Assembly (NCBI GenBank): GCA_008330645.1
Contig: VLTN01000059.1
Coordinates: forward strand, 1 to 64,000
Length of the DNA: 64,000 nt
Direction: 5' to 3'
Source of the DNA: Cafeteria roenbergensis
Lineage: Eukaryota > Sar > Bigyra > Bicosoecida > Cafeteriaceae
Part shown: positions 3,824 to 54,400 of the stretch, one piece after another
Numbering within the stretch: position 1 is the first letter of the stretch
Layout: each line of letters begins with the position of its first letter
Made by a program: the position numbers and the translations under genes
The notes under the pieces: generated by a model
What the model was told of the DNA's origin: nothing
What the model saw: the letters and a program-made list of their open reading frames with translations, nothing else
Database searches by the model: none

Positions 3824-4212
3824 CTGCGAGGTCACATGCCCTCCACAACCACAACCCTCTCGGCATACGATTGGCGACACCTGCAGCTAGCTGCCCACCG
3901 GCACCCGTGACGCAATGCTGCTGACCCGATCACCGTCGCGCCCCGGACTGTCCCGCATGTTTCCCCGCGCGGTCCGTGGAGCAGAAGCCTAACTGGCAGT
4001 ACAAAGACAACTTGCTGGATGTATTGGACCTCATCCCCTCGTCAGCGAGCGGGGAGCATGCTAGAAGCCTCAGCGCTCACGGCTGCGACATTTTTGCAGT
4101 TCAACGGCGCGCCCGCATCGAGCAGCCTGCTGGCCTCGGCAGTGTTCCCGGCCATCGCCGCCTCCCAGAGCGCGCTTGCCATTGCATTTGCCTCCACAGC
4201 AGTTGTGGCCAT
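1838..4212 (-). CDS. Ankyrin-repeat protein, one exon per repeat (9 exons)
   Basis: This is a reconstructed 304-aa ankyrin-repeat protein. Exon 1 is 4212-4081 (ATG at 4212, MATTAVEANAM..., ending with the capping repeat ALWEAAMAGNTAEASRLLDA). It is followed by exons 3823-3725, 3551-3453, 3269-3171, 2994-2896, 2721-2623, 2437-2339, 2211-2113 and 1927-1838. Exons 2-8 are each exactly 99 bp, phase 0 at both ends, and encode one 33-residue repeat of the form GGSTALILAAERGHKDTVEL + LLDRGADLEAKTG. Donors are GTGAG, or GTGTG in two introns; acceptors end in CAG. Introns are 127-257 bp. The last exon loses similarity just after ADLK and stops (TGA 1840-1838), 14 bp from the C-tract of retroelement copy 1, so the 3' end may have been cut by that insertion. 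The role is probably protein-protein binding; no partner can be inferred. Frame and splice continuity make expression plausible but unproven. Confidence 0.75.
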
Positions 4213-4342: not shown

Positions 4343-5061
4343 TCCGCGATGTCCTGCACGCGGCGGTGCGCTCGGCGGGGCTGCAGTCGGTGGTGGAGCC
4401 CTCCAGCTGGCAGGACGGGCAGACGCGCTTCGGGTCCCAGCCGGGGTCCAGCGAGGCCGCGCGCAAGCGACCGGACCTGCGGGTGCACGTCGACTTCGAG
4501 ACCACCTGTCTCGTCGACGTGCAGATCACCTCGGCGGTGAGCAAGTCCTACGTGACGCAGGGCCTGCAGAGCATGGACGCCTTTCTCGAGCGCCGTGAGA
4601 ATGACAAGATGAGGGAGTACAAGAAGAGCTCAGCTACAAAGGACAACATGAGCTCCATTGTGCCCTTCGTCATCACGACCACGGGACGCATGGGACCAGA
4701 GGCCTTCGCCTTCCTCAAGAAGGTGGCGGACACGGCCTTCGGTGACCGGCCGAGGGAGCGTGCGCGCTGGGCCTTTCGCTGGCTGTCGAGGCTGAACGAG
4801 GTCATCGCCAAGGGACTGGCGACCCAGCTGATCGGGCAGACGCAGTACCTGCGACAGCAGGTGGAGCGTATGCGGTGAGCAGGGGCGGCTGAGTGGCGAC
4901 TCGTGGCAGCGTGATTGCAGGGATCTGGGACTTGGGACTTGGGATTGCGAGTTTCGCGCGGTTTGTGATTCATCGGTGATGGAGTTGCAGGATTGGTGTT
5001 CGATGAGTCTGTGACTCGAGTGTGTGGTATGGTGACGCGAGTTTTCGCTCCCCCCCCCCCC
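4343..5061 (+). mobile_element. Non-LTR retroelement 3' end, RLE-type, copy 2 (5'-truncated)
   Basis: Same family as copy 1. It starts abruptly at about 4343 inside the RLE region (DVLHAAVRSAG...), stays open to a TGA at 4876-4878, and carries the same roughly 175-bp 3' UTR ending in a C-tract (5050-5061, 12 C interrupted only just upstream). A variable 5' end with a constant 3' end is what target-primed reverse transcription leaves. It lies just upstream of ankyrin exon 1, in opposite orientation. No target-site duplication is obvious. Differences from copy 1 are scattered single bases, so both are young. Confidence 0.8.
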
Positions 5062-21881: not shown

Positions 21882-24800
21882 TCAGCACCGCATGACTGCC
21901 GAAGCCGCCGCGTCCAGCGACGAAGAGTCGCCCGTTTGCTCCCAAACACCAGCTGCGAGGAAGGCGGCATCGCCCTCCGCGAGCAGTCGCGGGCCGGCGA
22001 GCAGCAAGCCCGGCACAGCGTTCGTCCACGGCGCCCGGGTCATGGGCGGCACCGTCGGCGCCGCGAGCACGGCGTGGAGCGACCATGCTAGCGACCCGCG
22101 CGCCGCGTCCACCGCACCGACTGAGTCCAGAACGAGCAGCGGTGAGCGCGTCGCGCCGGCGTCGACAAAGCCGACGGACAGAACTGCCCCCTGCGACCCG
22201 CTGCCGCCCGTGGCGGCGAGCGACTCTGAGCAGCGGCGAGCCAGCCCGCAGAGGCCGGCGGGGATCACGGCGCTCGCGTTTGCGCCCGCGTGCGGTCCAG
22301 CGGCCCGCCTCAGCCACAGGTTGCTCCCTGCGCCCCCGACGGCAATGACTGCGTCGCCGCGCCGGACCTGCGACTCCGCCAGCCCGGGCACGGCGTCCGC
22401 CACGATGCTAACGTGCGCGTCCGCGGCTAGCGCCCCGTGGGAGGCGATGAAGGCTGCCAGCGCGTTCCTCTGCGTCATCTCGTCCTCGTGGCAAGCCTGC
22501 TCCGTGCCGTTGCGCAGCAGGCAGCGGGACCCGACCACGATGGTCACTGGCCGCCTCCACACGTCCCGGGCGAAGGAGGCCGGCCAAGGGCGCCGCGGGG
22601 CGGCCGCGGCGGGCCGCACGCCTCCCTTGGGCTGCACCTCGGCGGACTCGGCGTCGAGGCCAGCGCCAGCGAAGGGCCCCCCCGCCCGCCCCCGATCGCG
22701 CGCCGCGGGGGGAAACTGCACGCTCACCCGCACAGCGCGCAGCGGTCTGTCGGGGTCGCGAGAGCAAACGCCCGACTGCTCCGCGGACCACAGCTCGCGG
22801 CCGGACGCGTCGCGCACGACTGAGGGCGGGGCAAACTCCGCCCATGGCTCTGCCAGCTCCGCAGCCGGCACGCCGGCCAGGCCGAGCTCGCCGGCAAGCC
22901 GCGACACTGCTGCAGAGAGCAGGCCCGCCTGACTGGGTCCGGGCGTCACGCGCTGCCACGCGCTGGACGAGTTGGGGAGCAGGCGCGCTCGCTGGACAAG
23001 CGCCGCGGGGCGCCCGGCAGCGCAGAGGACGGTCGTGTCGAGGCGGAGCGCAGCCACATTGCCGTGGGAGAGAAGGGTCCACACAACCGGCCCGCGCTCC
23101 GCGGAGTCGCCAGCACCGCCGCAGGCTGACACGGACACGCCCACGGTCGCGACCGCCACCCCGCCTGCGGTACCGCGACGAGCAATGGCGAGGCCCCGCC
23201 GACCCTCGGCCTCCTGGTCGTCGCCCACGCTCACTGAAAACACGCCGGCCACCCAAGCCTCGTCCAGGACGCGCCGCTCGCCGGCCTGCGGCGGGGCGCA
23301 CGTGGCCGAGGAGGCGGGCCTGGCCGTTGCGGGGTTGCCCTGCGCGCTCAGCGCACCGTCCGCCGCTGCCTGCCAGGCGCGGACCCCTGCCGCGTCGGAC
23401 GGGCGAGAGGCGCAGGCGGCCATGAAGGCCCTCGAGGCGCAGTCTGCCAGCACGCCTCCGTCGTTGGGCGAGCGCGTGTCCCAGAACCAGTGGCCCTTTC
23501 CGGGAATCTGCTCCAGGCGCAGCCAGGCCGAGGAGACGGCCGGCGGCGCGACAGCCGCCGCCCCTGCCCGGACCAGCGCCGCGAGTGAGGCCGCCCTGCG
23601 CGCCTGCGCGGCCCCCACCGCCCTCGCCCCGCGCCTGGAGAAGAGTGGCGGCACCGTCGCGTCGTCCGCCCCAGTGCGAACCACGGTGGGGACGCCCGCC
23701 GCCACGTCTGCGGCGTTGGCTTCGGCGTCGTTCCCCACCACGCACGAGTGGAGCACACCCCTGAGCCCGCCGTCCGACCGGCCCCAGTGCGCCGCGGCCG
23801 CGTCCACGGGGCCGAGCAGCAGGTTGGCGTCCGAGTACGCCTCCTTGCTCAGCCAGCCAGCCCCCGGCCACGCGCACACGGCTCTGCCAGCGCCCCGCGA
23901 CAGGGCCACCCACGCCCCGTGGCCGCCCATCGAGTGACCCGCCCACAGCACTCGCTGCCCGTCGGGCGTCGGCTGGCACGGCCACCAGCGGCCCACCGCC
24001 GCCAGCGCCCCCCGGTCGCGGCAGACGCCCTCCCAGTCGAGGGCTCCAGCCCCGGCCGACGCCCCCGCCAGCCCTGACGTGGACTGGGCGGCGGCCCCAG
24101 CGCCGACAAGCCGCCTTGCAGCCTCCGCAAGCCGCCCCAGCAGCAGCGGCACGGCCGCCACCGCCGCAGACACGGTGCCCTGCCCGTGGGGACCCTCCCA
24201 GTTGTGGGCGCCGCGCCGCTCCGGGGCCACCACCACCCAGGCGGGCACGCCAAACTCGAACCCGCCAGCGTCGGCCACGCTGGGCGCGGGGACCCCGCCG
24301 AGGCGCTCGCTCAGCGCCGCCGCAGCGCGCGTTGAGCCCGGCCGCCTGCCCGCCTTGAAGGCGTCGGCCTGGGAGGCGGCGCTCACGCCGGTCCCGTGCA
24401 GTGACACCAGCAGCGGCGGGCCGGCCGCGAAGGGGGATTCAACGGCCAGGTCTGCAGTGTCGCGGCCCGTGCCGGCCGCGGCAGCAGCTGCCCACGCCGG
24501 CACGCCCCCGGCAGAGCCGGCACCGCACTGCCCACCCCGGCGATCGGGCGCAGCTGGGGGAAGCGGCAGCACAACGGTTGCAGTGAGGGCCGCGCCGCCC
24601 GCGGCGGTGGCGAGACGGAAGCTGGTGGTGGCCGCCTCGCCCGCCGTTCGGCAGCGCACCACCGCCGCCAGCTCTGCCACCAGGACAGGCTCCGCTGGCT
24701 CTGCCGCTCCGAGAGACGGCGCCAGCACGCCCAGCAGCGACACCTGCAGCCGGGCAGCCGGGGCGCCGGGCGGGCACACGCCCTCTGGCAGGGCGATGAC

Positions 24801-26735
24801 CGCGGCCGCGCCGGGCTCTCGCGCCGCCTCCGCCTCCGCCGCTGCTGTGCTGGCGTGCCCCCCGCCCGCGCCCTCCCAGGGGCCTGGCGTCGCGGCCAGC
24901 GCCCCGCTGGCTTCCTCGGACAGCGGAACAGGCAGCACGGCGGCCTGCCCTGCACCGAGGTGGACAGCCCCCGCAGCGCAGACATGCCCCCGGCCGCCGC
25001 GCCCCTGGCTGGTCTTGACCGCGACCACGCCTGGTGCGCACCCGGGGCCGGCCGGCGCGTCGAGCGGGGCAGCGGCGCCCCACACCACCCTGCCGGAGGA
25101 CCACTGGCCGAGGCCCCCCGCCCCGGCCCCGTCCGCCGTGACCCTTGCCTCAGACGCGACCAGCGCGACGGGGCGCGCCCCCACCGCGAGCCTGGCGCCC
25201 ACCCACGCGCCCGCAAGCACGGCGCTGCTGCTCGCCTCGGGGCCCCACTCCGGGTCGACGCGCACCGCGTCCGGCGCAGACACGAGACCCGACCGCTCCG
25301 CCGCCAGGGCCGGCGCGTCAGCCTGGCGGCGGAACGCCCTCACAGAGCACGCCAGCGAGGCGCGCGCGCGCCCGCGCAGCCGGGACACCAGCTCGTACGG
25401 CCCCGCAGGCAGCCGGCCCGACCAGGACGCCCATCCCCCGCCGTACACGTCGGCGGCCAGCGGCAGAGCCCTGTCCCACCCGCCGCCCCCAGCCTCCGCG
25501 GCGGGGCGCACCAGCCACACGGCCGTGGGCCCCGAGCACGCGACAACGAGCGTGGCCGCCTCCGGCAGGCTGAGCGAGGACACGGCCCAGCCCTGCACCT
25601 CCAGCACGGCGGCCGTCCCCACACCCTGCACCAGCGCGTTCCAGGCCGCCCCCTCTGCCCCCGCCTCGGCTGCCAGCGCGCGCGCAACAGGCGCGGCCTC
25701 CAGACCGCCGGCGCCGTCGGCGAACGCGAGGCTGTCGGCTGGACGCTGCGCGCTCGGGGCAGATGCGGCCACGCTCCACTTAGCGCCGCCCTCTACCACC
25801 TCAGACGGGGACGCGTACAGAGCGTCCCCGCGGGCGAAGCCTGGGCCGAGGATGCCGGCGCCGGGCGCCGACCCGCCAAACAGGCCGTCCCCGCCCGAGT
25901 CGCCCACCGGGTCGGCCTCCACCTCCAGCTTGCCCGCCGACCACGGGCCCAGCCACAGCCAGCCGTCCAGCACGCCGCAGGCGTCCGCCCCCGTTGAGCC
26001 GCCCCCCCTGTGAGCCCGACCGGCTCTGCCGCCTCCCAGCTCCACGCGGCAGCGCGAGCGGGCCAACATCCGCAGCGCCTGCATGTCCGCTCCGCTGACC
26101 CCCAGGACCTGCCCCACGGTGGCGGGCGGGGCCTCGTCGCCGGTGCCAAGCACCCTGTCTGCCGCCGTTGCGGGCTGTCTTGGCGCCTCGCGAAGCATCG
26201 CACGGGCGACGCGCTCGAACCCAGTCGGCGCCGGAGACGCCAGTGACGAGGCCAGGCGCCCAAGCCAGTACGGGCCGCGCCGCCGGTCGGCCAGCCACCG
26301 CGGGGGGGCGCCCAACGGGTCGGCGGAGGCTCCGCGGTCCAGGTGGTGCGCTGTCGCCGACGCAGCGCAAAGCACCGAGCCAGGCGAGAGCCATGCCGGG
26401 AGGATCGAGGCATTCGCCGACCACGACGCACCCGGGATCTCCTGGCTATCGCCAGGGATACCGCCCCAGCCGCTGGCAGCCTGTGGGACGATCCAGTGCG
26501 CGGACGGCGGCAAGCGCAACCTCTGCGCGCACAGCTCGGAGACTCCAACGCCGCGAGAGCTCGCCGCCGCATCCACAAACGCACCCAGTCGTGCCGCTGC
26601 CGCCTTGGCATGCGCCTGAGCCACGCTCAGTGACTTGCGGGCGGAGCGCTGCCCCGGGGTCGCCGCGCGCGTTGGCACCATGGCGCCTGCCAACGCCAGC
26701 AAAGGCAAGGCGCGCCACGCGACAGTCCACCGCAT
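21882..26735 (-). CDS. Giant secreted alpha/beta-hydrolase (1617 aa)
   Basis: Single 4.85-kb exon, ATG at 26735, with a signal peptide (WRALPLLALAGAMVPTRA). A serine-hydrolase core lies at about residues 785-1110: PLLVSLHGTGVSAAS (oxyanion region), PERRGAHNWEGPHG, LWAGHSMGGHGAW (nucleophile Ser at about 934 in GHSMGG), VVRTGADDATVPP (likely catalytic Asp at about 1023) and IPGKGHWFWD (likely catalytic His at about 1079). This complete triad resembles S9-like or PHB-depolymerase-like esterases. The N-terminal 780 residues form Ala/Gly-rich beta-type regions (for example LEVQGWAVSSLSLPEAATLV). A C-terminal module (PVTIVVGSRCL...RNALAAFIASHGA...HVSIVADAVPG) has a G-S...D...N pattern often seen in large secreted algal/fungal hydrolases. 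Substrate is unknown. Extracellular or lysosomal digestion is likely. Confidence 0.75.
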   Translation of the reverse strand: MRWTVAWRALPLLALAGAMVPTRAATPGQRSARKSLSVAQAHAKAAAARLGAFVDAAASSRGVGVSELCAQRLRLPPSAHWIVPQAASGWGGIPGDSQEIPGASWSANASILPAWLSPGSVLCAASATAHHLDRGASADPLGAPPRWLADRRRGPYWLGRLASSLASPAPTGFERVARAMLREAPRQPATAADRVLGTGDEAPPATVGQVLGVSGADMQALRMLARSRCRVELGGGRAGRAHRGGGSTGADACGVLDGWLWLGPWSAGKLEVEADPVGDSGGDGLFGGSAPGAGILGPGFARGDALYASPSEVVEGGAKWSVAASAPSAQRPADSLAFADGAGGLEAAPVARALAAEAGAEGAAWNALVQGVGTAAVLEVQGWAVSSLSLPEAATLVVACSGPTAVWLVRPAAEAGGGGWDRALPLAADVYGGGWASWSGRLPAGPYELVSRLRGRARASLACSVRAFRRQADAPALAAERSGLVSAPDAVRVDPEWGPEASSSAVLAGAWVGARLAVGARPVALVASEARVTADGAGAGGLGQWSSGRVVWGAAAPLDAPAGPGCAPGVVAVKTSQGRGGRGHVCAAGAVHLGAGQAAVLPVPLSEEASGALAATPGPWEGAGGGHASTAAAEAEAAREPGAAAVIALPEGVCPPGAPAARLQVSLLGVLAPSLGAAEPAEPVLVAELAAVVRCRTAGEAATTSFRLATAAGGAALTATVVLPLPPAAPDRRGGQCGAGSAGGVPAWAAAAAAGTGRDTADLAVESPFAAGPPLLVSLHGTGVSAASQADAFKAGRRPGSTRAAAALSERLGGVPAPSVADAGGFEFGVPAWVVVAPERRGAHNWEGPHGQGTVSAAVAAVPLLLGRLAEAARRLVGAGAAAQSTSGLAGASAGAGALDWEGVCRDRGALAAVGRWWPCQPTPDGQRVLWAGHSMGGHGAWVALSRGAGRAVCAWPGAGWLSKEAYSDANLLLGPVDAAAAHWGRSDGGLRGVLHSCVVGNDAEANAADVAAGVPTVVRTGADDATVPPLFSRRGARAVGAAQARRAASLAALVRAGAAAVAPPAVSSAWLRLEQIPGKGHWFWDTRSPNDGGVLADCASRAFMAACASRPSDAAGVRAWQAAADGALSAQGNPATARPASSATCAPPQAGERRVLDEAWVAGVFSVSVGDDQEAEGRRGLAIARRGTAGGVAVATVGVSVSACGGAGDSAERGPVVWTLLSHGNVAALRLDTTVLCAAGRPAALVQRARLLPNSSSAWQRVTPGPSQAGLLSAAVSRLAGELGLAGVPAAELAEPWAEFAPPSVVRDASGRELWSAEQSGVCSRDPDRPLRAVRVSVQFPPAARDRGRAGGPFAGAGLDAESAEVQPKGGVRPAAAAPRRPWPASFARDVWRRPVTIVVGSRCLLRNGTEQACHEDEMTQRNALAAFIASHGALAADAHVSIVADAVPGLAESQVRRGDAVIAVGGAGSNLWLRRAAGPHAGANASAVIPAGLCGLARRCSESLAATGGSGSQGAVLSVGFVDAGATRSPLLVLDSVGAVDAARGSLAWSLHAVLAAPTVPPMTRAPWTNAVPGLLLAGPRLLAEGDAAFLAAGVWEQTGDSSSLDAAASAVMRC

Positions 26736-26884
26736 TGCGGCGGGCGGCGTGGCGCCAAGGCCCTGGGCAAGGTTCGCGTCCAGCCAGCGGGATCGCCGGC
26801 ACCGGAGTGATCACGCTGAACCGCTTCGCAGCAGAGGCAAATGTGCTCTGATTCCGCGCATTATTTCATTCGACTTACAGCCTT

Positions 26885-28032
26885 GTCAAAACCAATCCAG
26901 CAATCCATCCCCGACCCGCCGATTCCATGCGTCCCGTGGTCGTGACGACGAAGGGCACAATGGAGCTCAAGTTGTCCTTTGTAGCTGAGCTCTTCTTGTA
27001 CTCCCCCATCTTGTCCTTCTCACGGCGCTCGAGAAAGGCGTCCATGCTGTGCAGGCCCTGCGTCACGTAGGACTTGCTCACCGCCGAGGTGATCTGCACG
27101 TCGACGAGACAGGTGGTCTCGAAGTCGACGTGCACCCGCAGGTCCGGTCGCTTGCGCGCGGCCTCGCTGGACCCCGGCTGGGATCCGAAGCGCGCCTGCC
27201 CGTCCTGCCAGCTGGAGGGCTCCACCACCGACTGTAGTCCCGCCGAGCGCACCGCCGCGTGCAGGACGTCGCGGACGTCGTTGTGCGCCCGGATGGTGGA
27301 GCCCTTGCCGCAGCGGCAGCGCGCCAGGTGATGTGCCACACCGGAGACCCCGCCGATGTGGACGGTGCCTCTCGCGGTGGTGTCCCGCTCCATGCACGCG
27401 CAGTTGATCGACACGCCTTCCGGCACCACGTGGTCGGCCTCGGAGGCTCCGATGCGGTACCGGCCGACCACCGCGAACTCTTCGTCCGTGAGCCCGCGGG
27501 GTCCCATCATCGTGTTGCGGAGCCAGTAGTGCGTTCCCGGCACGCACGCCTCTCGGAACGCGACCAGGTCGCTCATGACGCGCAGCATGGCCGGGTCGTC
27601 GATGTCGGCGACGCGCTTCTCCGGCGTGCCCTTGGCCAGCGCCTCGGCCCTGCAGCGTGCTGTGCAGGCCGTGCGCGCCTTGGCCAGACGGCGCAGGAAG
27701 ACACACTCGTGCTTGATGCGCAGCATGTCGTCGTGGTGCAGCATCATCTTGCGCTGCCAGGGCGCCTCGGCCTGCTCGTTCGCCCGCGCCGTCACCCCGT
27801 CGCCGTACAGGCACTCGCGGAGCTTGGCCCGCAGCCGCTCCGGCAGCTCACGCTTGGCCGGGGGCGCGGGTGATCGTGCTCCGCGAGGTCTCGCATTGCA
27901 TGCCAATCCCGGGACGTGGTGGACCTCGTCTCTTCTTCCCGGCCCGTTGACGCCTCCGGAAGAACTGGATGCTTGCCTGCCCGCGAACTGAATCGCCCTG
28001 CCGGGCAGGCCCGAATGCGCGCCCGTCGCCAA
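26885..28032 (-). mobile_element. Non-LTR retroelement, RLE-type, copy 3 (internally deleted)
   Basis: This is the longest coding copy of the family here. Homology to copy 1 runs from 27670 down to about 26920, and the frame is open upstream to about 28032. Uninterrupted here are LTDEEFAVVGRYRIGASEAD, the Cys/His cluster (CACMERDTTARGTVHI ... HHLARCRCGK), and RPDLRVHV...DVQITS. After TTTGRM the coding sequence jumps straight into a piece of the 3' UTR (GGATGGATTGCTGGATTGGT near 26890), so roughly 270 bp including the end of the ORF are missing and the UTR stops early, without a C-tract. Upstream, LPERLRAKLRECLYGDG and KMMLHHDDMLRIKHECVFLR are helical; no reverse transcriptase motifs occur. 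It lies 1 kb upstream of the NTPase-nuclease gene, in opposite orientation. Confidence 0.75.
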
Positions 28033-29072
28033 GGCCGAAGCACGACATGTTCTAGTTTAACATATTCATAGAGCTCATGACTGAGTGGGTAACTTTCCCC
28101 AATCGCAACGGCACGCCGCGCGCAATTCCCACTCCGTGCCTCGGGGAAGCTCGTGCCCCCGCGGCCCCTGTGCGCAAGGCCAAGTCCCTTCCGCTCTCTG
28201 TCCATTGCAGGACGCGTGGGTCCTGGCAGTACGCCGAGTCGTCGCCTCCAGCCAACTGAATCCATGAGCCTCCACCAGCCAATCCCATTGCTCGGTGCCT
28301 TCGTCCAGACGTTTATTTTCCACATTCCTCGGGATCAACTGCGGCTGGGGTGAGCCCTGAAGCAACGCCAGAGAGACGCAGCATCTCCCGCTCGTTGCCT
28401 TCTCGTCTGCTCCGCGGGGCGGTGTGCGAGCACCGCAAGCAAAGTGCTGGGTATATACTGCACATGTTCACGCCAATGCGCTGATTGCCCACCCCAAACT
28501 CCTGGCCGCGACTCCCATGCGCAGGGGGGAGGCTTGCGAAACTCGGCGCCGACGGCAAGGCCGGCTCCCCAGCCAGTGCGGCTTCAAGGCCCTAGCCCGC
28601 GGCATCTGCTTTGGGAGACACATGTGTCTCAGATGAGGGGGTGGACGCTGGCGGGTGTGGGGCTGGAGCGGTCCTGGGGCGGTTCAGGAGCCTGCGCGAC
28701 AGCTGCGACAAGCAGCGCCTGTGCTTCGCAACGCCCGCCGAGCGCGCAAGCCACACTTGAGCGCGACCCCACCTCGCGACACACTCGGAAACAAGCATGG
28801 CCGGAGCTGCGGGTCAGTTGGGCTATGGCCGGGCTGCAGGCGCGGCCCTGTTCGGCCGGCCGCGCGTTGGTGGTTTGCTCGCGGTTCTGCTGGCATAGTT
28901 GGCTCTGCTCTCGGCTGCATCGGGCAGAGCTGCAGGCCAGCATTCGAACGCGACAACGGCGAATTTGCCGAGCACACTCGCCTTTGTCGCGCCCGCGGAC
29001 TCCCAGGAGGCCGCCCGCGACGCTGACAAGCCCCACAACGAGCAACCTTCCTCGCGTTTTGCCGAGCTTGCC
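28033..29072. other. Upstream region of the NTPase-nuclease gene
   Basis: About 1 kb of lower-GC DNA. A TATATA-containing stretch (GGGTATATACTGCACATG at about 28450) is the only core-promoter-like element, but it is 620 bp from the chosen ATG. The NTPase frame is open back to about 28899 without an upstream ATG. No RNA gene or second protein is recognised. Confidence 0.35.
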
Positions 29073-32000
29073 ATGCTGAGCCAAGTCTCACGGGGCGCAG
29101 GGCGGGCGTGGCGGGCTGTGCTGTCCGCATGCGCGCGGACGGCGGTTTCGGCGAGACTGCCTTCGAACCAGCCAGTCGCGGTCCTGAGCGGCGCAGGCAA
29201 GCCCCTGTGCCGCACCCTCTGGAGCGCAGGTTCCTTGGTGCTTCACGACAGCACGGGCGGCGCGCGGCCCGTCCTGGTGCGCCTTCTGAGCTCCGCGGCG
29301 TCGGAGACTGACACCCACCCGTTTGCGACTGACGCCGAGCAGTGGCTTGCCGACCACCTGACCCAGGAGGAAGCCGGAACCGACGCCATCGATTTAGCCC
29401 TCGGGGTACTCTCGTTGTCCTCCGTCTCGCCGGAAGTCGCCCGCGCCCGGGTGGAGCTTGTGCAGGCCTTTTTCACGTTCAACACGAGACTGCTCGCCGT
29501 CAAGGGGCTCCGCTCTGCCGGCAACGAGGACATCGTCAAGCTGCTTGGAAGGCTCGGCACCGCCAGCATGGAGCTCGCCCACTGCACCGACATCGACGCC
29601 GTGCTTCAGCATGCCGGAGTGACTCTGACCATGCCCGGCGGCAACGCGCAGCTGGCCAAGTGGCACCGGCTGGGCCACCTGCAGTCCGTGGCCGGAGGCT
29701 TCGCGGAGGTCATGGCCAAGCCATCCACCATCGCCACGGTAAAGGAGAATGCCAAGGAGCTGCTTTTGGAGGCCGAGGAGCAGGCGGCGACGCGAGAGTC
29801 CCGCCGAAAGGTGCTGGATAAGCTGGACGAAGCCGTTGGCTTTGTGCACAAGGACTTGCTGGAAGCAACGGCGGCCGAGCTTCCTGAACGAGGTGACCAA
29901 TCGGTCGAGGACTTCGTGTTCGCACAGATGCAGCAGCCTGGCGGCCTCTCTGCTGCCGCCCGTATGGCTGCCAGCTCGCCAGCGGCTCGCTCTGTGGTGT
30001 CGCAAGCCGTGGATCAGCCCTGGTGGTTGCTTTGGCCAGGCTCCGAGGCTCGAAAGGGGTTGGCGAGCAGGATGGCTAGGGATATCGCTGCGTTGACCCA
30101 TCCGACCAATGGACTTGGAGAGACGAATGGGCGCGCTGTGTTCGGCCCGCGTGGAGTTGGCAAGACGTCCATGCTTGCAGCCGGTGCTGTCGCTGCCGGC
30201 GTCTTCTCTAGAATCTCATCCCTCCCGGAAGGGAGCAGAAGGATCGTGCCAATGTATCTTCACATGGGACGCGCGGCATACCTCTACGAGCGCCACGAGT
30301 CAGCGGCGAAGCACGGTGGTGCCTGGCTTAGCTGTGCGTCGCCACTCATGATGCTCATGGACAGGGCCGTTCAGCTTGCAGGGTTCAAGCCGAGAATCGA
30401 CGTCGACCCAGACGCGCGGAAGTGGGACGGCAGCTCCTGGTGGTCGGTGCCATCGAGGGCAGGCAAGTTTCTGCAGGAGCACAACCTGTCCATGTTCCTG
30501 GTCATCGACGAAGCGGACGAGCCGTACAAGAAAGGTGGCCAGTTTGCGGAGGAGCTTCGAGACTTTATCGACCAGAAGTGGAACATGTGCTACTACGTTT
30601 CGGGAAGTGCAGCCCGGATGAGGGACCTCCTTTATCACCCGCGGCAGCTCGAAGGCAGCGGGATGTACCACTGGGAGGACTTCAAGCACTGTGACATGCA
30701 CTCCGATAAGCTAGCGGCTCAACCTGCGTTGCCGCCAATTCAACACTTGGACGAGTTCGCTGAGGCCATCAAGTGCATCGGAGACGAGTTTGCCGCGCCA
30801 AAGCTGTTTCGTGCGGCTTGCGAGTGGCGCTCCGAGGAGACGGCGAGGCTTCGATTTGCAGAATTGGTTCTGCAGCATGGTGGAGTCTTGCGTTCGCTGG
30901 TGGCCGACAAAAAGCGCACGGACACTGAGCTTCCCCTCTTCAAAATGCGCAGCGACATCAGCGCGGATGCCGGGCGGCTCGCTATCGCACTGACCTTCTA
31001 CGATCGCTTGATTCGCAAATGGCCAGGGCTGAAGTCAGAGTCAGTGGTTGGCATGCTTGCGTCTGGCAGTCTGGGTTCTGTGACAGACGTGGGGATTGAC
31101 TTCGCGGAGCTTGTGGCGACCTTCAATGAGCGCGTGGCTTCCAGCCATGGGCAACAGCACGTAAAGCTAGCAGCCACAGACGTTGAGAGCACACTCTCAT
31201 CCCTGTCCGACGCGGGTGTGCTGACCTTGAGCGGAAGCCGCTGGGTGCCTGCGAGCTGGACCAGTTTGCTAGCCATCCTCTTGTCTGTGGAGGGCAACGT
31301 GGAGCTGCCGTACGAGCAGCGCGTGCACCTGCGGTATCCGACCATCGGAAGCACCACCACGGAGCCTGCAATGGCAGACGCGTTCGTCAAGCGCGGGCAA
31401 CAGTCCACGGTGTTCGTCGACGAAGCCGGACACCAGCCGAGCGCCGAGCTCCAGGCGAGCCTGTGGAAGTCTATGCGCGCCCTTGGCCGCACCGACTCGC
31501 ACGGGCTGCCCGCCATTGAGCAGGTCAAGTGGCCCAAGAAAGGGGAAGGGAACTTTGCCGACTGGAAGTTGGACAGCTTCCTGGGCCCCACGCCCGATAG
31601 TGGCGTCGACGTCGTGATTCTGACCACGGCAGACCGCGAGCGCTCCCCGCCCGTGCAGCATCTGGTGCTATTGCAAGTCAAGACCAGCGCGGCTCGTGAA
31701 GACAAGACTATCCCGAATATTGAGCAAGTGGGAAACATTGTGGACGGCTTCACCAGGCAGCTAAAGAGCTGCCCAGGCCTCGTTAGAGGAATCAAGGGCA
31801 GATTCTCTGACGATGCTGCCTTGGTCGTTTGGACGATCATTGTCACAAACCGAACAGTGACGCCAGCGACCATCCAAACGCTTCGAAAGGAGACGCGTTC
31901 AAGGCGTGCCAGTCTCGTTGAGGCCCTGAACCAAGGAGCTCCGGAGCCAGCCACCGGAGCAGCGAGCGAAGAATCTCGCATGCCAGCATTCCATGGGCCT

Positions 32001-32108
32001 TTTGTTGGCGTCTCGAGCGGAGATCAGCTCCTGAAAGGGCTGAATTCCGCGATCAAGCACTGGGCAAGGAAATCGGACATGATGGCATGGGGAGGACAGC
32101 TTGAGTGA
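29073..32108 (+). CDS. P-loop NTPase with winged-helix and C-terminal PD-(D/E)XK-like nuclease (Crinkler/RHS-like)
   Basis: Single exon, 1011 aa from the ATG at 29073. Residues 1-75 look like a mitochondrial leader (MLSQVSRGAGRAWRAVLSAC; later VRLLSSAAS, a plausible cleavage site). Residues ~80-330 are helical. The NTPase domain has Walker A FGPRGVGKTSML (~355) and Walker B SMFLVIDEADEPY (~474), followed by MCYYVSGSAARMRDLLY as a sensor-like strand, as in Arch_ATPase/STAND proteins. A winged-helix-like segment follows (VESTLSSLSDAGVLTLSGSR + W). The C-terminal domain reads SGVDVVILT...QHLVLLQVKTSAA (~843-872), fitting the D...(E/Q)xK core of restriction-type nucleases with Q for E. NTPase plus REase is the layout described for Crinkler/RHS-type proteins and for some antiviral NTPases. 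Base composition is lower than its neighbours. It is bracketed by RLE retroelement copies. Function could be element-derived, genome-conflict or defence; none is proven. Confidence 0.65.
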   Translation: MLSQVSRGAGRAWRAVLSACARTAVSARLPSNQPVAVLSGAGKPLCRTLWSAGSLVLHDSTGGARPVLVRLLSSAASETDTHPFATDAEQWLADHLTQEEAGTDAIDLALGVLSLSSVSPEVARARVELVQAFFTFNTRLLAVKGLRSAGNEDIVKLLGRLGTASMELAHCTDIDAVLQHAGVTLTMPGGNAQLAKWHRLGHLQSVAGGFAEVMAKPSTIATVKENAKELLLEAEEQAATRESRRKVLDKLDEAVGFVHKDLLEATAAELPERGDQSVEDFVFAQMQQPGGLSAAARMAASSPAARSVVSQAVDQPWWLLWPGSEARKGLASRMARDIAALTHPTNGLGETNGRAVFGPRGVGKTSMLAAGAVAAGVFSRISSLPEGSRRIVPMYLHMGRAAYLYERHESAAKHGGAWLSCASPLMMLMDRAVQLAGFKPRIDVDPDARKWDGSSWWSVPSRAGKFLQEHNLSMFLVIDEADEPYKKGGQFAEELRDFIDQKWNMCYYVSGSAARMRDLLYHPRQLEGSGMYHWEDFKHCDMHSDKLAAQPALPPIQHLDEFAEAIKCIGDEFAAPKLFRAACEWRSEETARLRFAELVLQHGGVLRSLVADKKRTDTELPLFKMRSDISADAGRLAIALTFYDRLIRKWPGLKSESVVGMLASGSLGSVTDVGIDFAELVATFNERVASSHGQQHVKLAATDVESTLSSLSDAGVLTLSGSRWVPASWTSLLAILLSVEGNVELPYEQRVHLRYPTIGSTTTEPAMADAFVKRGQQSTVFVDEAGHQPSAELQASLWKSMRALGRTDSHGLPAIEQVKWPKKGEGNFADWKLDSFLGPTPDSGVDVVILTTADRERSPPVQHLVLLQVKTSAAREDKTIPNIEQVGNIVDGFTRQLKSCPGLVRGIKGRFSDDAALVVWTIIVTNRTVTPATIQTLRKETRSRRASLVEALNQGAPEPATGAASEESRMPAFHGPFVGVSSGDQLLKGLNSAIKHWARKSDMMAWGGQLE

Positions 32109-32735
32109 ACGTCTCGTCCACCTTGCCGCAAGCGCTGACGTATGACTGCTGTTCGGTAACCGGTTGGGTTCATTTTGTCCGCAGACGTAGATTCTACCCT
32201 GACCCATCTGGCATCGTCATGACACTCTCTTGGGCTACGCGGCTTCCCCACAGCGTGCTGGGGGTGCCCCCGGCGTGACTCAGAGGGTCCCGAGCTCTGG
32301 TCTACCCGCCTGCGTCGGCGGCCAAGACAAGCAGCTCGCCGGCAAGGCGCGCAGCGTGTGCCTCGCTTTGCCCGCCGTGCCGTGCGAACGTTCGCACAGC
32401 ACTCCAGGGCCCGTTGCGATCGGCTTTGAGGTTGTGTGAGAGCAAAACCGCATTCGTGACCCGCCCGCCCATCCCGCGGCAGGCTGAGAGGTGGCTTGCG
32501 AGGTTTCAGTGCCTCTGTGGGTGCAGTCACCGAGCAAGGCACTGCCACTCCTAGCCTGCTGGCGCCGGACACCGAACAGGTGCCCATTTGGCCACTGCTG
32601 GATGCGTGATCACCATTCCCTACGATCACACGCATCAGCACGAATCGGAGGCCTTGCCGGACAGTCTTGTGTCTCGTTGGCAGAGTGAAGGCGAGGACCG
32701 CCGATGCTGACTTGGTGGCTGAATGTAAACCGTTG
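32109..32735. other. 3' region of the NTPase-nuclease gene
   Basis: 627 bp between the NTPase stop and the tail of retroelement copy 4. Only short frames with no family resemblance are present; I see nothing functional beyond a presumed 3' UTR. Confidence 0.35.
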
Positions 32736-33430
32736 AGGGGGGCCGAAAACTCGCGTAACCATACCACACACTCGATTCACAGACTCTTCAAGAACCAATC
32801 CTGCAACTCCATCACCGATGAATCACAAACCGCGCCAAACCCACAATCCCAAGTCCCAAGCCCCAGATCACTCCCATCACACTGCCACGAGTCGCCAATC
32901 AGCCGCCCCTGCTCACCGCATACGCTCCACCTGCTGTCGCAGGTACTGCGTCTGCCCGATCAGCTGGGTCGCCAGTCCCTTGGCGATGACCTCGTTCAGC
33001 CTCGACAGCCAGCGGAAGGCCCAGCGCGCACGCTCCCTCGGCCGGTCGCCGAAGGCCGTGTCCGCCACCTTCTTGAGGAAGGCGAAGGCCGCCGGTCCCA
33101 TGCGTCCCGTGGTCGTGACGACGAAGGGCACAATGGAGCTCAAGTTGTCCTTTGTAGCTGAGCTCTTCTTGTACTCCCTCATCTTGTCATTCTCACGGCG
33201 CTCGAGAAAGGCGTCCATGCTCTGCAGGCCCTGCGTCACGTAGGACTTGCTCACCGCCGAGGTGATCTGCACGTCGACGAGACAGGTGGTCTCGAAGTCG
33301 ACGTGCACCCGCAGGTCCGGTCGCTTGCGCGCGGCCTCGCTGGACCCCGGCTGGGACCCGAAGCGCGTCTGCCCGTCCTGCCAGCTGGAGGGCTCCACCA
33401 CCGACTGCAGCCCCGCCGAGCGCACCGCCG
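32736..33430 (-). mobile_element. Non-LTR retroelement 3' end, RLE-type, copy 4 (5'-truncated)
   Basis: Same family as copies 1 and 2. On the minus strand it starts at about 33430 (AVRSAGLQSVVEPSSWQDGQ), runs through RPDLRVHV...DVQITS and PFVVTTTGRMGP to the TGA at 32915-32913, then the shared 3' UTR, ending in a short C-tract (G-run 32737-32742 on the plus strand). Its 5' truncation point differs from copy 2, as expected for independent insertions. It sits directly against a reading-frame fragment on the other strand. Confidence 0.8.
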
Positions 33431-33675
33431 ATTCTCTCAGCAGAGCAGCGCATGACGTTGGCGCAACAGGTCTCAGTGCGGAGGAGGCCCGAAAGCTGGC
33501 TGCAGACTTGCTCCCATTCAAGTCCGAAGCGAGCGGCGTTCCTTTTTACATTGTCCAGATTGTCGCCGACCATGAAGTGATGCTGGACGTGTGGCCAGCG
33601 CGCGTGAAGCGGTTGGCGGCAGCAGCGGGCATCCACAACTACAGCGAGCCCAGCCCGTCAAGTCCTGATAAGTAG
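33431..33675 (+). pseudogene. Orphan C-terminal reading-frame fragment cut by retroelement copy 4
   Basis: An 81-codon open frame on the plus strand begins at the exact edge of retroelement copy 4 and ends at a TAG (33673-33675). It reads LSAEEARKLAADLLPFKSEA then GVPFYIVQIVADHEVMLDVW and RVKRLAAAAGIHNY. Composition is protein-like and lower in GC than the surrounding housekeeping genes, like the NTPase gene on the same strand. I recognise no family. It is probably the 3' remnant of a gene whose upstream part was displaced or lost at the insertion. Confidence 0.4.
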
Positions 33676-33995: not shown

Positions 33996-36115
33996 TCAGG
34001 CCTCATGGGAGCCTGCCGCCGCCGCCGCAGCAGCAGCTGTGGCGGAAGAGGCGGGCGCCGCGACTGGCACTACGTCGAGCGCCAGCGCCTGGTACCCCTT
34101 GAGGGTGCCGAAGGCCGCCGAGGGCGGCAGGTTCTCGACCACGGCGTACGCCCCGGCCATGCCGGTCGCCTTGGTGTCCGGGTGCTCGCGCAGGTACGCT
34201 GCCTCCGCGCTGAGGTCCGTTAGCATGGTCGCCAGCGAGCGCTCGTGGGCCTGCATTAGGCAGAGCTGCGCTGCCTTTGGCTTCTGGAGCGTGACGAAGG
34301 CCCAGCCGCGGCGGTGTTCCATGCGCTCCACCAGGGCGTAGATGCAGAACACGTCCGATGTGAAGGCGACGCAGCTGCAGTCCGGCCGCACGAGCAGGCG
34401 CAGGCCGTCGATGGCCTCCACGCCGGCGGCGAAGCGGCGCACCATGCTGTCCACGCTGCGCGCAAGGCGGGTGTAGCCGTCCCGGCCCATGTACACCATC
34501 GTGGCCCACGCCTGTGCCATCAGGGCGCCCGACCTGGAGCCCTGCATGGTGGGGGTCACGTAGAAGCCCCCCGGGAAGTCTGCGACGGGCACGAATGCGT
34601 GTGCGCGCAGCTCCCGGAAGGAGAAGAGCGCAGTGGAGGCGCCCTTGGAGGCCAGGCCGTACTTGTGCAGGTCCACGCTCATGCTGGTGACGCCAGGCAC
34701 GGCGAAGTCGAACTCGGGGACGGCGATGCCGGCGTCGCGCATGCCGCTCATGAGGACCCCGCCGAGGCAGTTGTCCACGTGGAGCCCCACGCCGCGCCGC
34801 TGGCAGAGCTTGCCCAGCTCCGCGATGGGGTCAACCATTCCGTGGGGGAAGGTGGGCGCACTGGCGTAGACGAAGGCAGTGCGCGGGCCGATTGCGGCCG
34901 CCACGTCCGCAGGCCGCATCCTGAAGCCCGTGGACTCGTTCACGGGCACGGTGACCAGGCGCATCCCGAAGCACTTGACGGCCTTGTCCAGAGCGGGGTG
35001 CCGGGTGGCGCCGGCCACCACCTCCACGGGCCCGCAGGCTCCCATCAGGCGGCCCAGCACCGTGATGCTGGAGCGGAAGCTGTCGCGGTACGCCTTGGTC
35101 GCCAGGAGCACGGATTCTGTGCCTCCCGAGGTGAGAAGGCCGCAGTGCGAGCCCTCGGCGGGGGCCGAGCACATGCTGAGCGTCATGCGGATCAGCTCCG
35201 CCTCGATCTTGCGCACCGACGGGTAGATGCCCGGGTAGAGCGCGTTCGACGCGGAGTAGAGGCGCCACACGTCAGCCTGCAGCTCCTTCATCGTCTTGGT
35301 ATCGGCGGAAAAGGGGTCGGAGTAAATGCCGCCGGTGGCCGTGCCGTCCCGCATGCGCGTCTCGTGCTCCCGCATGGTCTTGAGGGTCTCCAGCACATCC
35401 TTGGCATTGAGGCCCTCCCTGGGCATCTCCAAAAGCGCGGCTGCGAGGAGGCGGCGGTCGGGGCAGGAGGAGGCCACGCAGGCAACTAACTGACTGACGC
35501 AATTCGCAAGGCCGCGCGCGGCGGACACGAGAGCGGGTGCGCGAGCTATGCCGCACAGGGCACGCGGCGGGGAATGCGCCGCAGTCGCAACCGCCAGCAA
35601 GCACGCCCCCGGGGCGGCAGGGGTGGCCTCGTTCCATGGGCCTGGGCGCCAGCGCAGCGCGGCAGAGACAGCCTCCGGGACGCCCCCTCCCCCCCTTCTC
35701 CCCCGCGAGGCCCTGCTCGCCGGGCGGGCCGGCGCCGGCACTGCCCAGGCTGCCCGGCAGCGATGCACGGCGGCCGCTCCTCTGCGTTCCGGCGCCGGGC
35801 GGCAGCAAGCCGGCGCTCACTCGGATCGCCGTCGCCGTGCAGGCTTCGCTTGATGCCCGCCAGAGACTTGTCTTCCTCGGCCTGGATCATCGCCTTGACG
35901 GCGGGAAGGCATTTTGCGGCTTCGATCGCGGACTCGATGGCGCTGTTCTTGAACTCCGTCGGATTGGACGCAGCCCACAGGAGCGCCGCGAGGGCGCGGT
36001 ACGAAACATAGCCGGCCGCCGCAAGCGCAAGGTAGTGTTCCAGCTTGCGGGCCTGCCCCTCCTCGGGAGGCGCTAGGAGGGATTCCAGGGAGCTGCGGAG
36101 CTTGTCGAGGTCCAT
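33996..36115 (-). CDS. SGPL1: Sphingosine-1-phosphate lyase
   Basis: A PLP-dependent ER enzyme that cleaves sphingosine-1-phosphate to hexadecenal and phosphoethanolamine, ending sphingolipid breakdown. Two exons, 36115-35821 and 35440-33996 (phase-1 intron of 380 bp, GTGAGC...TCGCAG), encode 579 aa, the usual size. Exon 1 begins MDLDKLRSSLESLL and supplies the N-terminal membrane anchor (YLALAAAGYVSYRALAALLW) and the linker KCLPAVKAMIQAEEDKSLAG. Exon 2 opens ALLEMPREGLNAKDVLETLK. Core motifs are GGIYS, SNALYPGIYPSVRKIEAE, LTSGGTESVLLATKAYRD, VDNCLGGVL and SVDLHKYGLASKG, with the PLP lysine in HKYG at about residue 356. The C-terminus ends in an Ala-rich tail. It is divergent from the disordered protein at 36482. 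Confidence 0.92.
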
Positions 36116-51459: not shown

Positions 51460-54400
51460 TCAGTCGGCCTTGTTGCCCGGCGCGCGCGCGGCCGGACCCG
51501 CCTTCAACGGCGCAGTGGCCCGCCTGAGAGCCACTGCCAGCCTGGACGAGGCCAGCTGCAACAGCTCCAGGCGCTCGGCCCGCCGGACCCTGGCCGCCCG
51601 CACAGCCGCGGGCGTCGAGCTGCTGCCCCTCCCCTTGTCGACCGCGTCGCCCCCAATATCTCTCCCGTCCAGCGCCGCCTCCAGCGTCGCTCGCACCAGG
51701 CCAGCGAGCCGCTTGCGGTCGAGGCAGCGAGGCATGAAGCCCGTGCCCCCGACGGCCGCTGCCGCCGCGCCCGCACCTGCCCCCAGAGCCTCCAACGCCG
51801 CCACGGCCCCCTCCACCGCAGCACGCCGCTCTGCCACCGCTCGCGACCGCAGCCACCTCGCGCGCTGAACGGCCTTGGCGGCGGCATCGTCCCCGTCGCC
51901 ATCCCCGGCAGCCAGCCCAGCCCCGCCACTCTCCCCGCCGTCGCAGTCCTCGCTCGAGGCTGCTGCGGCTGCAGAAGCCGCTGCCGCCCCGGCCGCAGTC
52001 CGGCGAAGCGTGGCCCCCGAGCCAGCCCCGGCAAGATCCATCGACACGCCAATGCCCCCCGCGCCTCCGGCCGCCACAGCCACGCGCTCTGCCACCGCAC
52101 GTTCGCGCCCATGCGCACCAGCACCAGCACCGCCAGGATAACCCTCCTCCTCCTCGTCCTCGTCCTCCTCGTCCTCGGCAAGGAACACCAGCTCGTCCAC
52201 CGCGGCTTGCCATCGGCCCCCCGCCGCCTCGCACAGTCGCACCAGCTCGCTGCACGCCGTCAAGCCCTGCTGCAGCAGAGCCGTGTCAACACGGTTGGGA
52301 CCCGCGGCGTCGTCCGCCGGGCCCGCGGGCGCAGCCTCCGAGGCCACTGCAGCGTCGTCCGCCGGGCCCGCGGGCGCAGCCTCCGAGGCCACTGCAGCGT
52401 CGTCCGCCGGGCCCGCGGGCGCAGCCTCCGAGGCCACTGCAGCGTCGTCCGCCGGGCCCGCGGGCGCAGCCTCCGAGGCCACTGCAGCGTCGTCCGCCGG
52501 GCCCGCGGGCGCAGCCTCCGAGGCCACTGCAGCGTCGTCCGCCGGGCCCGCGGGCGCAGCCTCCGAGGCCACTGCAGCGTCGTCCGCCGGGCCCGCGGGC
52601 GCAGCCTCCGAGGCCACTGCAGCGTCGTCCGCCCGTGCCTCGTCGCAGCTGTTGCCGTCCCGCGCCACCGTCAGCTCGACCGCGATCAAGGCTTGCTCTC
52701 GCGCCGCCAGCACGGCCAGGGCGCCGAGCAGCCGCGGTCGCGCCGCCAGCCAGAGCGGGGACCCGCCCGCTGCGCGAGCCAGCACACGTATCAGGGCGCC
52801 GCTCTCCGCTGGCGCCTCCGGCCCGAGCTGCACCACGCTGAAGACGGCCACCTCTGCCGCATCGCCGCAAGCTGCAACCGCGTCTGCCGACTCTGACGCA
52901 GCAAGCTCCGCCGCGCGCGCTGCCATGACAGGGAACCTCTCCAGCAGGCCGGACAGGAGCCCCGCCCTGGCCACGGCCGCGGCGCAGGCTGCGGACAGCG
53001 GGGCAGCTGCGGCGGAGCTGGCTGGCGCGACCCCTCGGGCAAGGAGGGCGAGCGCGGCGGCAGAGGCGGCCGACACCGCCGCAGCGTGGGCCGAGTCCGC
53101 TCGCTCCGCTGGGGCTCCGCCGCCCTCTGCTGCCGGTGCGGCTGGCGAGTCCTCCGCCGCCCTGCCGCACCCCTCTTCGGTCTCAGCCGGCTGCGGGGAT
53201 GCCCGGCCGGCCTGCCGCGGCGCCGCGCTCCGCCCGGCTGCGGCCGCAAGACTGCAGACTGACGCGAGCACGTGCGCATCGGCCAGTGCCCGCAACCAGG
53301 CGGGCGCCGTCGTGGCCGCTGCGCCGGCATCAGCGGGCGTCACGGCCGCGTCTGCCGCTGCGGCCAGTGCAGACAGCGCCGCCGTAGCGACCGCGATCGA
53401 AGCGCCGCCGGCGGGGTCGTCGCTGCCGCTCCCAGTGGCGGGCGCCGCCGGTCGGGCCGTGGGGGACTCTGGCGGGCTGTCGGCGCGTTGCTCGGCCACC
53501 CAAGCAGCGGCAGCAGCGCTGGCCGCCGCAGCCAGGTGCCGCGCACTGGCCATGGCGGCAGGGCTGCTCGCGGGCCGGCCTGGCGCTCGCGGGGCCGCCG
53601 CCGGTGAGGGTGCTGGCGGCGGGACTGGCGCCTTGGCGGGAGTTCCGCCTCCGGCAGCGCCCGACGCCACGACGGCCAGGGCAAGCCAGCAGGCTGCGGC
53701 GCCGTCCGCGAGCGCGCGATCCGATGCGACGCCCCGGCAAGACGCAGCCTGCATGGCCTCCGCTGCGCGCCGAAGGGTCCCCGCGGTAGAGCTGGACCAC
53801 TCCTCCGGTGGCAGGGTGCAGCAGAGACTCGCCGCAGCGACGGCCGCGCTGCGAGCCGACGAGGCGCCCGTCAAGTCCACGGGCGAGCCAGCCGGCCCGC
53901 TGAGGAACACCGTCGCCGCCAGGCGGGCGGCGGCGCGACTGTTGTCGGCGCCGGCCGTCTGCATCGCCCCTGCGGCGGTCTTCGGGCCCGCGTCCTCGTC
54001 CTCGCTGCCAGAGTCGGCCTCGGGGGCCAGGTCAGCGCTGGCAGTCGGGCCCAAGGCCAGGGCGCGTGCCGCCTCGGCCAAGGGGCTCGCAGGCAGCTGG
54101 GAGGCAAGGTGGCGGGAGCAGAGGCCGGTCAGCCCCGAGAGCACCGCCGGCGTGACGCGCTCCCACGCGGAGGGGGAGCCGCGTGGGCCCAGCTCGGCCA
54201 GCAGCGCAAGAAGGTCGTCTCCTCGGCCCTGCGACAGCAGCGGAGCACAGAGGTGGTCGCGGCCATTGCGCGCGGCCGGCCCAGCGGCTTGAGCACACCT
54301 GGCGCTCACGGCCGGGTCGCAGGGGCCCTTCCTGCTCGTGCCCACCCAAGCTGCCAAGTCGCATCCGCCCCTCATACTAGTACCACGTGCTCCACACGGC

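What the first reader, a model, noticed from the sequence alone, without database searches (positions are those of the whole stretch)
26885..33675. NTPase-nuclease gene bracketed by RLE retroelement relics: a possible Crinkler/RHS-type island
A 1011-aa single-exon protein combines a P-loop NTPase (FGPRGVGKTSML, FLVIDEADEPY), a winged-helix-like segment and a PD-(D/E)XK-like end (GVDVVIL...LLQVKTS). That domain order is known for Crinkler/RHS proteins and for some antiviral NTPase-nucleases. In trypanosomes RHS genes are retrotransposon hot spots, and here copies of one non-LTR family lie on both sides (26.9-28.0 and 32.7-33.4 kb) in the same orientation, with a gene fragment at the outer edge. 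It could be a host defence or conflict gene, or a mobile passenger.
Basis: partly seen in the sequence, partly recalled or inferred. Interest (0 to 1): 0.8.

Follow-up and report, generated by a model that had tools for sequence, protein, structure and literature searches.

The report
Shuffled nuclease genes amid retroelement relics
This gene belongs to a large, reshuffled family of ATP-driven, probably DNA-cutting proteins in a marine flagellate known as a giant-virus host; the copies are embedded in retrotransposon debris, resemble the Crinkler/RHS proteins of other eukaryotes, and may serve defence or genetic conflict.

Summary
The window starts a contig of a 36.3 Mb, ~70% GC genome matching Cafeteria burkhardae strain BVI. 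The 1011-aa ORF has a conserved P-loop and an invariant GxD...QxK signature of PD-(D/E)XK type. It belongs to a family of 53 hit clusters (18 fetched frames uninterrupted). The family is modular: a leader (mitochondrial-presequence-like or NLS-like), a shared header core, a coiled coil, then NTPase-nuclease module A, A', B or C. One 5' cassette (truncated RLE, ~1.1 kb spacer, header) is 82-99% identical in front of unrelated modules, and header and effector of the same gene pair can differ about tenfold in synonymous divergence, so modules have been swapped. The upstream RLE has one truncation point (nt 3802-3805) in all 14 upstream regions read that hold it: it travels with the gene. A second RLE end lies within ~100 bp of the gene end in 20 of 24 members read. 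The outer fragment is the end of a B-type paralog. Best reading: a Crinkler-RHS-like (CR) family with its own headers, spread together with an array-forming retroelement. Nuclease activity, compartment and antiviral role are inferred, not shown.

The parts
26870..27851 (-). RLE retroelement fragment (copy 1), truncated at RLE nt 3802 on its 5' side; decayed 3' end at about 26870
   Evidence: blastn to L050: 27851-26916 at 95.9%; last ~45 bp towards 26870 compared by eye with other RLE ends
27852..29072 (+). Spacer / presumed promoter region shared by paralogs with different effector modules
   Evidence: 82-85% nt identity to upstream regions of A, A', B and C members where ~1.4-1.5 kb align
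29073..32108 (+). A-type NTPase-nuclease gene, 1011 aa, single ORF
   Evidence: three paralogs 85-87% identical over aa 224-1011, 81-83% over full length
29073..29291 (+). Leader aa 1-73: Arg/Ser/Ala-rich, no acidic residue in the first 58, amphipathic, RLLSS motif (mitochondrial-presequence-like; inference)
29292..29810 (+). Header core aa 74-246, the most widely shared part of the family
30144..30170 (+). Walker A, GPRGVGKTS (aa 358-366)
   Evidence: aa 358-364 and 366 invariant in 9 sequences; coordinates
30492..30527 (+). Walker B-like, MFLVIDEADEPY (aa 474-485)
   Evidence: DEADEPYK invariant in 9 sequences; coordinates
31110..31290 (+). Winged-helix-like stretch (approximate, by eye: LSDAGVL...W.P.SW)
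   Evidence: conserved; no profile hit
31602..31682 (+). PD-(D/E)XK-like signature GVD(846)...LLQ(868)VK(870)
   Evidence: invariant in 9 sequences; aligned to the same signature in B by hhalign; coordinates
32720..33430 (-). RLE retroelement 3' part (copy 2) with a diverged 3' end
   Evidence: 33430-33025 at 98.3% to L050, 32720-33080 at 83-96% to flanks of other members; end by eye, not found by the motif search
33421..33675 (+). Decapitated B-type paralog: last 79 codons (33421-33657), short tail and stop
   Evidence: 65% identity, query 735-813 of 813; ORF end

Best explanation
The gene is an intact member of a mosaic Crinkler-RHS-like (CR) family. Shown: one 5' cassette (truncated RLE, spacer, header) is joined to unrelated or anciently diverged NTPase-nuclease modules, some swaps are recent, and units lie in retroelement arrays concentrated at contig ends. 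Inferred: the leader sends the protein to mitochondria (the other leader class to the nucleus); header core and coiled coil act as sensor or partner platform; the NTPase switches on a C-terminal PD-(D/E)XK nuclease against DNA inside the cell, in defence against invading DNA (giant virus, virophage, retroelement) or another intracellular conflict. Recombination among RLE-rich contig ends keeps generating new header-effector combinations.
For: Family size and modularity. Invariant catalytic-type residues. NTPase: AAA_16 above the Pfam cut-off in B-type L045 (35.7 against 32.6 bits); A and B effectors homologous by profile comparison (probability 96.9%, E 1.4e-10; nuclease parts 94.2%, E 1.1e-7), B and C effectors weakly (73.6%, E 2.9e-5). 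Cassette swapping: upstream 82-99% identity across types where ~1.4-1.5 kb align; C53 A' and C27 C headers 94-100% identical by segment, then unrelated effectors; B-type C55 against C14: header dS 0.14, effector 1.4-2.6; C14 against C46c the reverse, 0.42 against 0.13-0.18. dN/dS below 1 in every effector segment that could be estimated. Leader features. CR definition and the NTPase+HTH+REase architecture: passages of PMC5289972.
Against: No significant match of the window protein in Pfam, PDB, NCBIfam or PADLOC; the profile of nine matched only a prohibitin at E 0.68. B-type L045 hits TolA (E 2.7e-9, below its cut-off, coiled coil) and weak PADLOC ATPases (E 0.004 and above). Nuclease profiles of C against A and B: probability 10% and 1%. 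Single-sequence AlphaFold models were useless (mean pLDDT 36 and 44). Leader targeting has no genomic control (attempt failed) and 8 of 22 leaders are not more amphipathic than shuffles at p<0.05. No expression or activity data. Only about 20 of 53 clusters look intact. Header dN/dS of 0.5-0.9 in most pairs could mean relaxed constraint. Large dS values are near saturation.
Confidence: 0.55

Rival explanations
1. Retroelement cargo: the unit RLE 3' part - spacer - gene behaves as a non-autonomous RLE element that carries the gene antisense and is added at chromosome ends by RLE machinery; host benefit is secondary.
For: Same RLE truncation point in all 14 upstream regions read that hold the piece. 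RLE 3' terminus 4-102 bp after the gene end in 20 of 24 members read, at about a dozen different junctions by eye. RLE 3' terminus also on the proximal side of the unit in 5 of 6 read, one of them a diverged match. Short nested RLE 3'-end pieces at some gene-RLE and RLE-RLE junctions. On contigs of 60 kb or more and within 20 kb of an end, RLEs point inward in 82 of 83 and genes outward in 21 of 24. Tandem gene-RLE-gene order in C27.
Against: Segmental duplication or recombination between RLE copies plus later RLE additions gives much of the same pattern. No target-site duplication was demonstrated. C20 shows no proximal RLE terminus. Members on C59, C45, C11, C62, C20, C27, C29, C34 and C46 lie 29 kb or more from a contig end. 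In C53 only ~25 bp of the downstream RLE end remain before other sequence.
Confidence: 0.3
2. Nuclear housekeeping or chromatin factor, as reported for some trypanosome RHS proteins (transcription or mRNA export; recalled, not read), with repeats due to location only.
For: NLS-like leaders in one class; RHS-like architecture.
Against: Copy number, mosaicism, many broken copies and presequence-like leaders fit conflict better than housekeeping.
Confidence: 0.12
3. Secreted Crinkler-type effector used against other cells.
For: Same domain order as oomycete CRNs (PMC5289972, passages).
Against: No signal-peptide-like hydrophobic stretch by eye; leader looks mitochondrial or nuclear; bacterivorous protist (abstract of PMC6972860), not a known parasite.
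Confidence: 0.08
4. Decaying repeat family with little current function, homogenised passively by recombination at contig ends.
For: About 33 of 53 clusters broken, partial or not read to the end; header dN/dS 0.5-0.9 in most pairs.
Against: 18 long uninterrupted frames with invariant motifs where aligned and effector dN/dS 0 to 0.78.
Confidence: 0.12

Closest known systems
CR (Crinkler-RHS-type) proteins, NTPase+HTH+REase class (Zhang et al. 2016, seen only through passages of PMC5289972)
   Same: Variable N-terminal header, P-loop NTPase, HTH-like stretch, PD-(D/E)XK-like C-terminus; modular; reported also in free-living eukaryotes
   Different: No Ubl/LXLFLAK header matched; two leader classes with organelle- or nucleus-type features; leader, header and effector all recombine
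Trypanosome retrotransposon hot spot (RHS) family
   Same: Multigene NTPase family associated with retroelements
   Different: No RHS family in the Pfam scans; RLE lies beside the gene with an inherited upstream junction, not inserted in the coding start (RHS detail recalled)
Terminons and Penelope-mobilised host genes of bdelloid rotifers (passages of PMC5537684; abstract of PMC3846280)
   Same: Retroelements at telomeres that accumulate oriented host ORFs, or machinery that expands host gene families
   Different: The element here has a standard RT (PF00078) with RLE-type C-terminus, not a Penelope/Athena RT; mobilisation of the gene not proven
HeT-A/TART/TAHRE and Giardia GilM/GilT (passages of PMC5537684); FoTeR (abstract of PMC12857005)
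   Same: Non-LTR elements at chromosome ends, in one-way arrays and often 5'-truncated; FoTeRs co-localise with host helicase genes
   Different: Many contigs here stop inside the arrays and no canonical telomere repeat was found, so a telomeric position is inferred

Membership tests
CR (Crinkler-RHS-type) | Modular: N-terminal header joined to exchangeable C-terminal effector modules | tested here: met
CR (Crinkler-RHS-type) | P-loop NTPase domain | tested here: met
   motifs invariant; AAA_16 over cut-off in L045; A-B homology. The window protein itself stays below cut-off (AAA_14, E 0.024)
CR (Crinkler-RHS-type) | C-terminal REase (PD-(D/E)XK) fold | tested here: inconclusive
   GxD...QxK invariant but no Pfam, PDB or NCBIfam nuclease hit and no usable model
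CR (Crinkler-RHS-type) | HTH between NTPase and REase | tested here: inconclusive
   winged-helix-like stretch by eye only; no Pfam HTH hit
Oomycete CRN | Ubl/LXLFLAK N-terminal domain | tested here: not met
   no such Pfam match in seven representatives; leader differs
Trypanosome RHS (Pfam sense) | Significant match to an RHS profile | tested here: not met
   none listed for seven representatives
Trypanosome RHS | Retroelement insertion at a recurrent site inside the coding region (recalled) | tested here: not met
   RLE flanks intact genes: one inherited 5' junction, 3' ends after the gene. In truncated C12 and C13 an RLE lies next to the place where the gene is cut
Prokaryotic antiviral NTPase-nuclease | Convincing PADLOC match or detectable prokaryotic/viral relative | tested here: not met
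   only A- and B-type queries, type C was not searched outside the genome
Telomeric retroelement cargo (Terminon-like) | Gene lies inside a unit with element ends on both sides, same polarity as the arrays | tested here: met
   for part of the family: downstream end in 20 of 24, proximal end in 5 of 6 read; polarity
Telomeric retroelement cargo (Terminon-like) | Evidence of transposition of the unit (target-site duplication or spanning RNA) | not testable with these tools
   needs other strains or RNA data

The most novel reading that the evidence does not exclude
An array-forming, probably telomeric RLE non-LTR retrotransposon carries an immune-like nuclease gene antisense inside its transposition unit. 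It thereby both disperses the family and, by recombination and repeated end addition, reshuffles targeting leaders, headers and effector modules: a retroelement-driven diversity generator for intracellular nuclease effectors in a giant-virus host.
Probability: 0.25. Interest if true: 0.88.

Novelty: new variant of a known kind. Interest (0 to 1): 0.62.

Why it matters
How unicellular eukaryotes resist giant viruses is largely unknown. This is a large, variable, nuclease-like family in a cultured flagellate for which a giant virus (CroV) and a virophage (mavirus) are available and four strains are sequenced (abstracts of PMC8547959 and PMC6972860), so induction, localisation and activity can be tested directly. 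It would also show a concrete route (shared cassette, retroelement arrays) by which Crinkler/RHS-like repertoires diversify outside parasites.

Tried and rejected
Independent RLE insertions upstream (hot-spot reading): rejected for the units read, because the RLE truncation point is the same in all 14; C45 and C12 have an RLE upstream whose junction I did not read. Direct family labels from Pfam, NCBIfam, PADLOC and PDB: nothing significant for the window protein; PHROGs was not scanned. Phage, plasmid, viral and prokaryotic relatives: none found; the scans need conserved short peptides and a tblastn confirmation, so distant relatives can be missed. Structure prediction of nuclease part and header from single sequences: mean pLDDT 36 and 44, not used further. 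Mitochondrial control genes (Hsp60, ATP synthase family) for the leader: N-termini could not be delimited, control abandoned. Canonical telomere repeats: no 18-base TTAGGG run in the genome search (that tool says it skips simple repeats in DNA searches) and one degenerate stretch in the loci held.

Full report
Setting. The window is bases 1-64000 of contig C59 of a 36,303,456-base, 167-contig genome; GC in 2-kb steps is 60-79%. Published strain BVI of Cafeteria burkhardae (then C. roenbergensis) has 170 contigs, 36,327,047 bases, N50 460,467 and 70.1% GC (PMC6972860, passages). Contig C26 here is exactly 460,467 bases, so I take the genome to be BVI. The abstracts of PMC8547959 and PMC6972860 name this species as host of giant virus CroV and virophage mavirus.

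The gene. ORF 29073-32108 (+) encodes 1011 aa without stops. In an alignment with eight paralogs (38-86% identity to the window protein) the P-loop FGPRGVGK, DEADEPYK and a C-terminal GVD...LLQxK are invariant. B-type proteins carry their own GxD...QVK, invariant in the five aligned; C-type have GGVDVMVV...LLQSK (sequence). The window protein has no significant Pfam, PDB, NCBIfam or PADLOC match. B-type L045 passes the Pfam cut-off for AAA_16 (35.7 bits against 32.6). Profile-profile comparison links A and B effectors (probability 96.9%, E 1.4e-10) and their nuclease parts (94.2%, E 1.1e-7, catalytic-type residues aligned). B and C effectors match at 73.6% (E 2.9e-5), A and C at 1%; nuclease parts of C match A at 10% (over the motif only) and B at 1% (the profiles hold 3-9 sequences). 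The nuclease call is therefore motif-based, and the winged helix is by eye.

The family. Own-genome searches with the window protein, the header and two effector modules merge into 53 clusters. One B-type row was left out of that list by oversight (C55:233133-235571; its gene was counted by its header), and a broken gene may be split into two clusters. Eighteen fetched frames are uninterrupted (A 4, A' 5, B 6, C 3; L045 lacks its start in the piece fetched); two more are long open frames by the tables only (C70, second C76). The others are broken, partial or not read to the end, which could be decay or assembly error. N-termini fall into a presequence-like class (22 starts examined: 5-10 R/K and 0-2 D/E in the first 58 residues; R-x-L-S-S in 22 of 22; amphipathic moment beyond shuffles at p<0.05 in 14 of 22; related sequences, so not independent) and an NLS-like class (MAD...SSSS...KRSRRE...KKHK). 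NLS-like leaders occur with A' (C135, C82, C45), B (C46) and C (C52) effectors; presequence-like ones with A, A', B and C. A stretch of the header core exists in two forms, and both occur with A, A', B and C, in C the second form once (C52); mosaics of the two occur in C14 and C34.

Swapping. Upstream stretches of ~1.4-1.5 kb are 82-99% identical between members with unrelated effectors; C108, C112 and C122 align over ~870 bp (80-82%), C29 over ~400 bp (74%), C45 in two pieces. C53 (A') and C27 (C) are 94-100% identical by segment across the header and unrelated after it; C55 (B) and C76 (C) are 95-100% identical upstream and 77-96% in the header. Synonymous divergence: C55 against C14 (both B), header 0.14, effector segments 1.4-2.6 (near saturation); C14 against C46c, header 0.42, effector 0.13-0.18. 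dN/dS is 0 to 0.78 in the effector segments that could be estimated and 0.26-0.90 in headers.

Retroelement. The flanking repeats belong to an element with a reverse transcriptase (PF00078, E 3e-20) and an RLE-type C-terminus (by eye). 107 copies were scored out of 324 candidates, a lower bound. Within 20 kb of a contig end lie 97 of 107 copies and 34 of 53 family clusters, against 15% of the genome. On contigs of 60 kb or more and within 20 kb of an end, 82 of 83 RLE copies point inward with their 3' end and 21 of 24 family clusters read outward (101 of 167 contig lengths interpolated). No TTAGGG run was found, and many of the contig starts read lie inside RLE sequence (by eye), so 'telomeric' is an inference.

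Association. 24 of 53 clusters have an RLE within 5 kb, against a mean of 5.6 (maximum 11 in 400 simulations) for random loci matched for distance to contig end; 13 of 53 have an antisense RLE 0.9-1.3 kb upstream, against 0.1-0.2 (maximum 3); 6 of 53 have an antisense RLE ORF within 600 bp downstream, against 0.2-0.4 (maximum 2-3) (not gene-matched, same lower-bound RLE list). Of 21 upstream regions examined, 14 contain the RLE piece, and all 14 start at RLE nt 3802-3805: one ancestral junction. Of the other seven, C11 (A) was too short to tell, C45 has its RLE beyond the 1.5 kb read, C29 shows only a 41-base RLE match elsewhere, and the two C108, the C112 and the C122 members have other flanks. 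Downstream, a motif search finds the RLE 3' terminus 4-102 bp after the gene end in 20 of 24 members whose complete 3' end and flank I hold, broken ones included. For C135 a diverged end lies at about +39 by eye and for C46:187k RLE-like sequence begins about 90 bp after the end by blastn. The true exceptions are the window gene (RLE-like sequence from about +612) and C55:232k (+694). For C70 and C85 the distance is from the last matched residue. Several members share one junction; about a dozen are distinct by eye. Of two truncated members left out of the 24, C12 has an RLE terminus 50 bp after its shortened frame and C34 none in the 437 bp read; C13 is cut short next to an RLE. On the proximal side an RLE terminus was found in 5 of 6 units read (one diverged), not in C20. 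In the window the second RLE is followed by the last 79 codons of a B-type paralog. The whole block sits between two minus-strand ORFs, one starting at 26735 (no Pfam match) and a PLP-decarboxylase-family gene at 33999-35768.

Interpretation. Architecture and modularity match the CR class as summarised in PMC5289972 (passages), but header and profile tests are negative or inconclusive, so I say 'works like a CR protein' with more confidence than 'is an RHS or Crinkler'. In the held library two papers contain both 'Cafeteria' and 'Crinkler' (listing only); neither title nor abstract start concerns this family, and print outside that library was not searched. The most likely role, an NTPase-gated intracellular nuclease in conflict with invading DNA, is inference. 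The most novel reading, RLE units carrying the gene, explains the fixed upstream junction and the RLE ends next to the gene ends, but competes with segmental duplication plus end addition.

Noticed in passing
window 1-1534 and 4343-4766: RLE retroelement sequence (+) at the contig start, 97-98% identical to a copy on C1.
   Followed up: yes
window 2259-3853: Tandem array with ~284-bp period (5.8 copies) between RLE pieces at the contig start.
   Followed up: no
window 52307-52633: 45-bp unit repeated 7.3 times with 100% match; a multiple of three, so possibly coding.
   Followed up: no
window 21882-26735 (-): 1617-aa ORF without Pfam match at E 0.001, with a serine-hydrolase-like stretch (GHSMGGHGA, by eye).
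   Followed up: partly
G000 C76:132432-136187 and 141282-145037: Two C-type units 100% identical over the query, a recent tandem duplication or an assembly duplicate near a contig end.
   Followed up: partly
window 29355-29516 and paralogs: Two alternative forms of part of the header core (HLTQEEAGTDAIDL / HLPRESARRDAVGL) occur with each effector type, like a dimorphic locus.
   Followed up: partly
L102, L103, L108, L009, L038: Short pieces (roughly 90-490 bp) of the RLE 3' end stacked before the next RLE 3' end, reminiscent of tags in telomeric arrays.
   Followed up: partly
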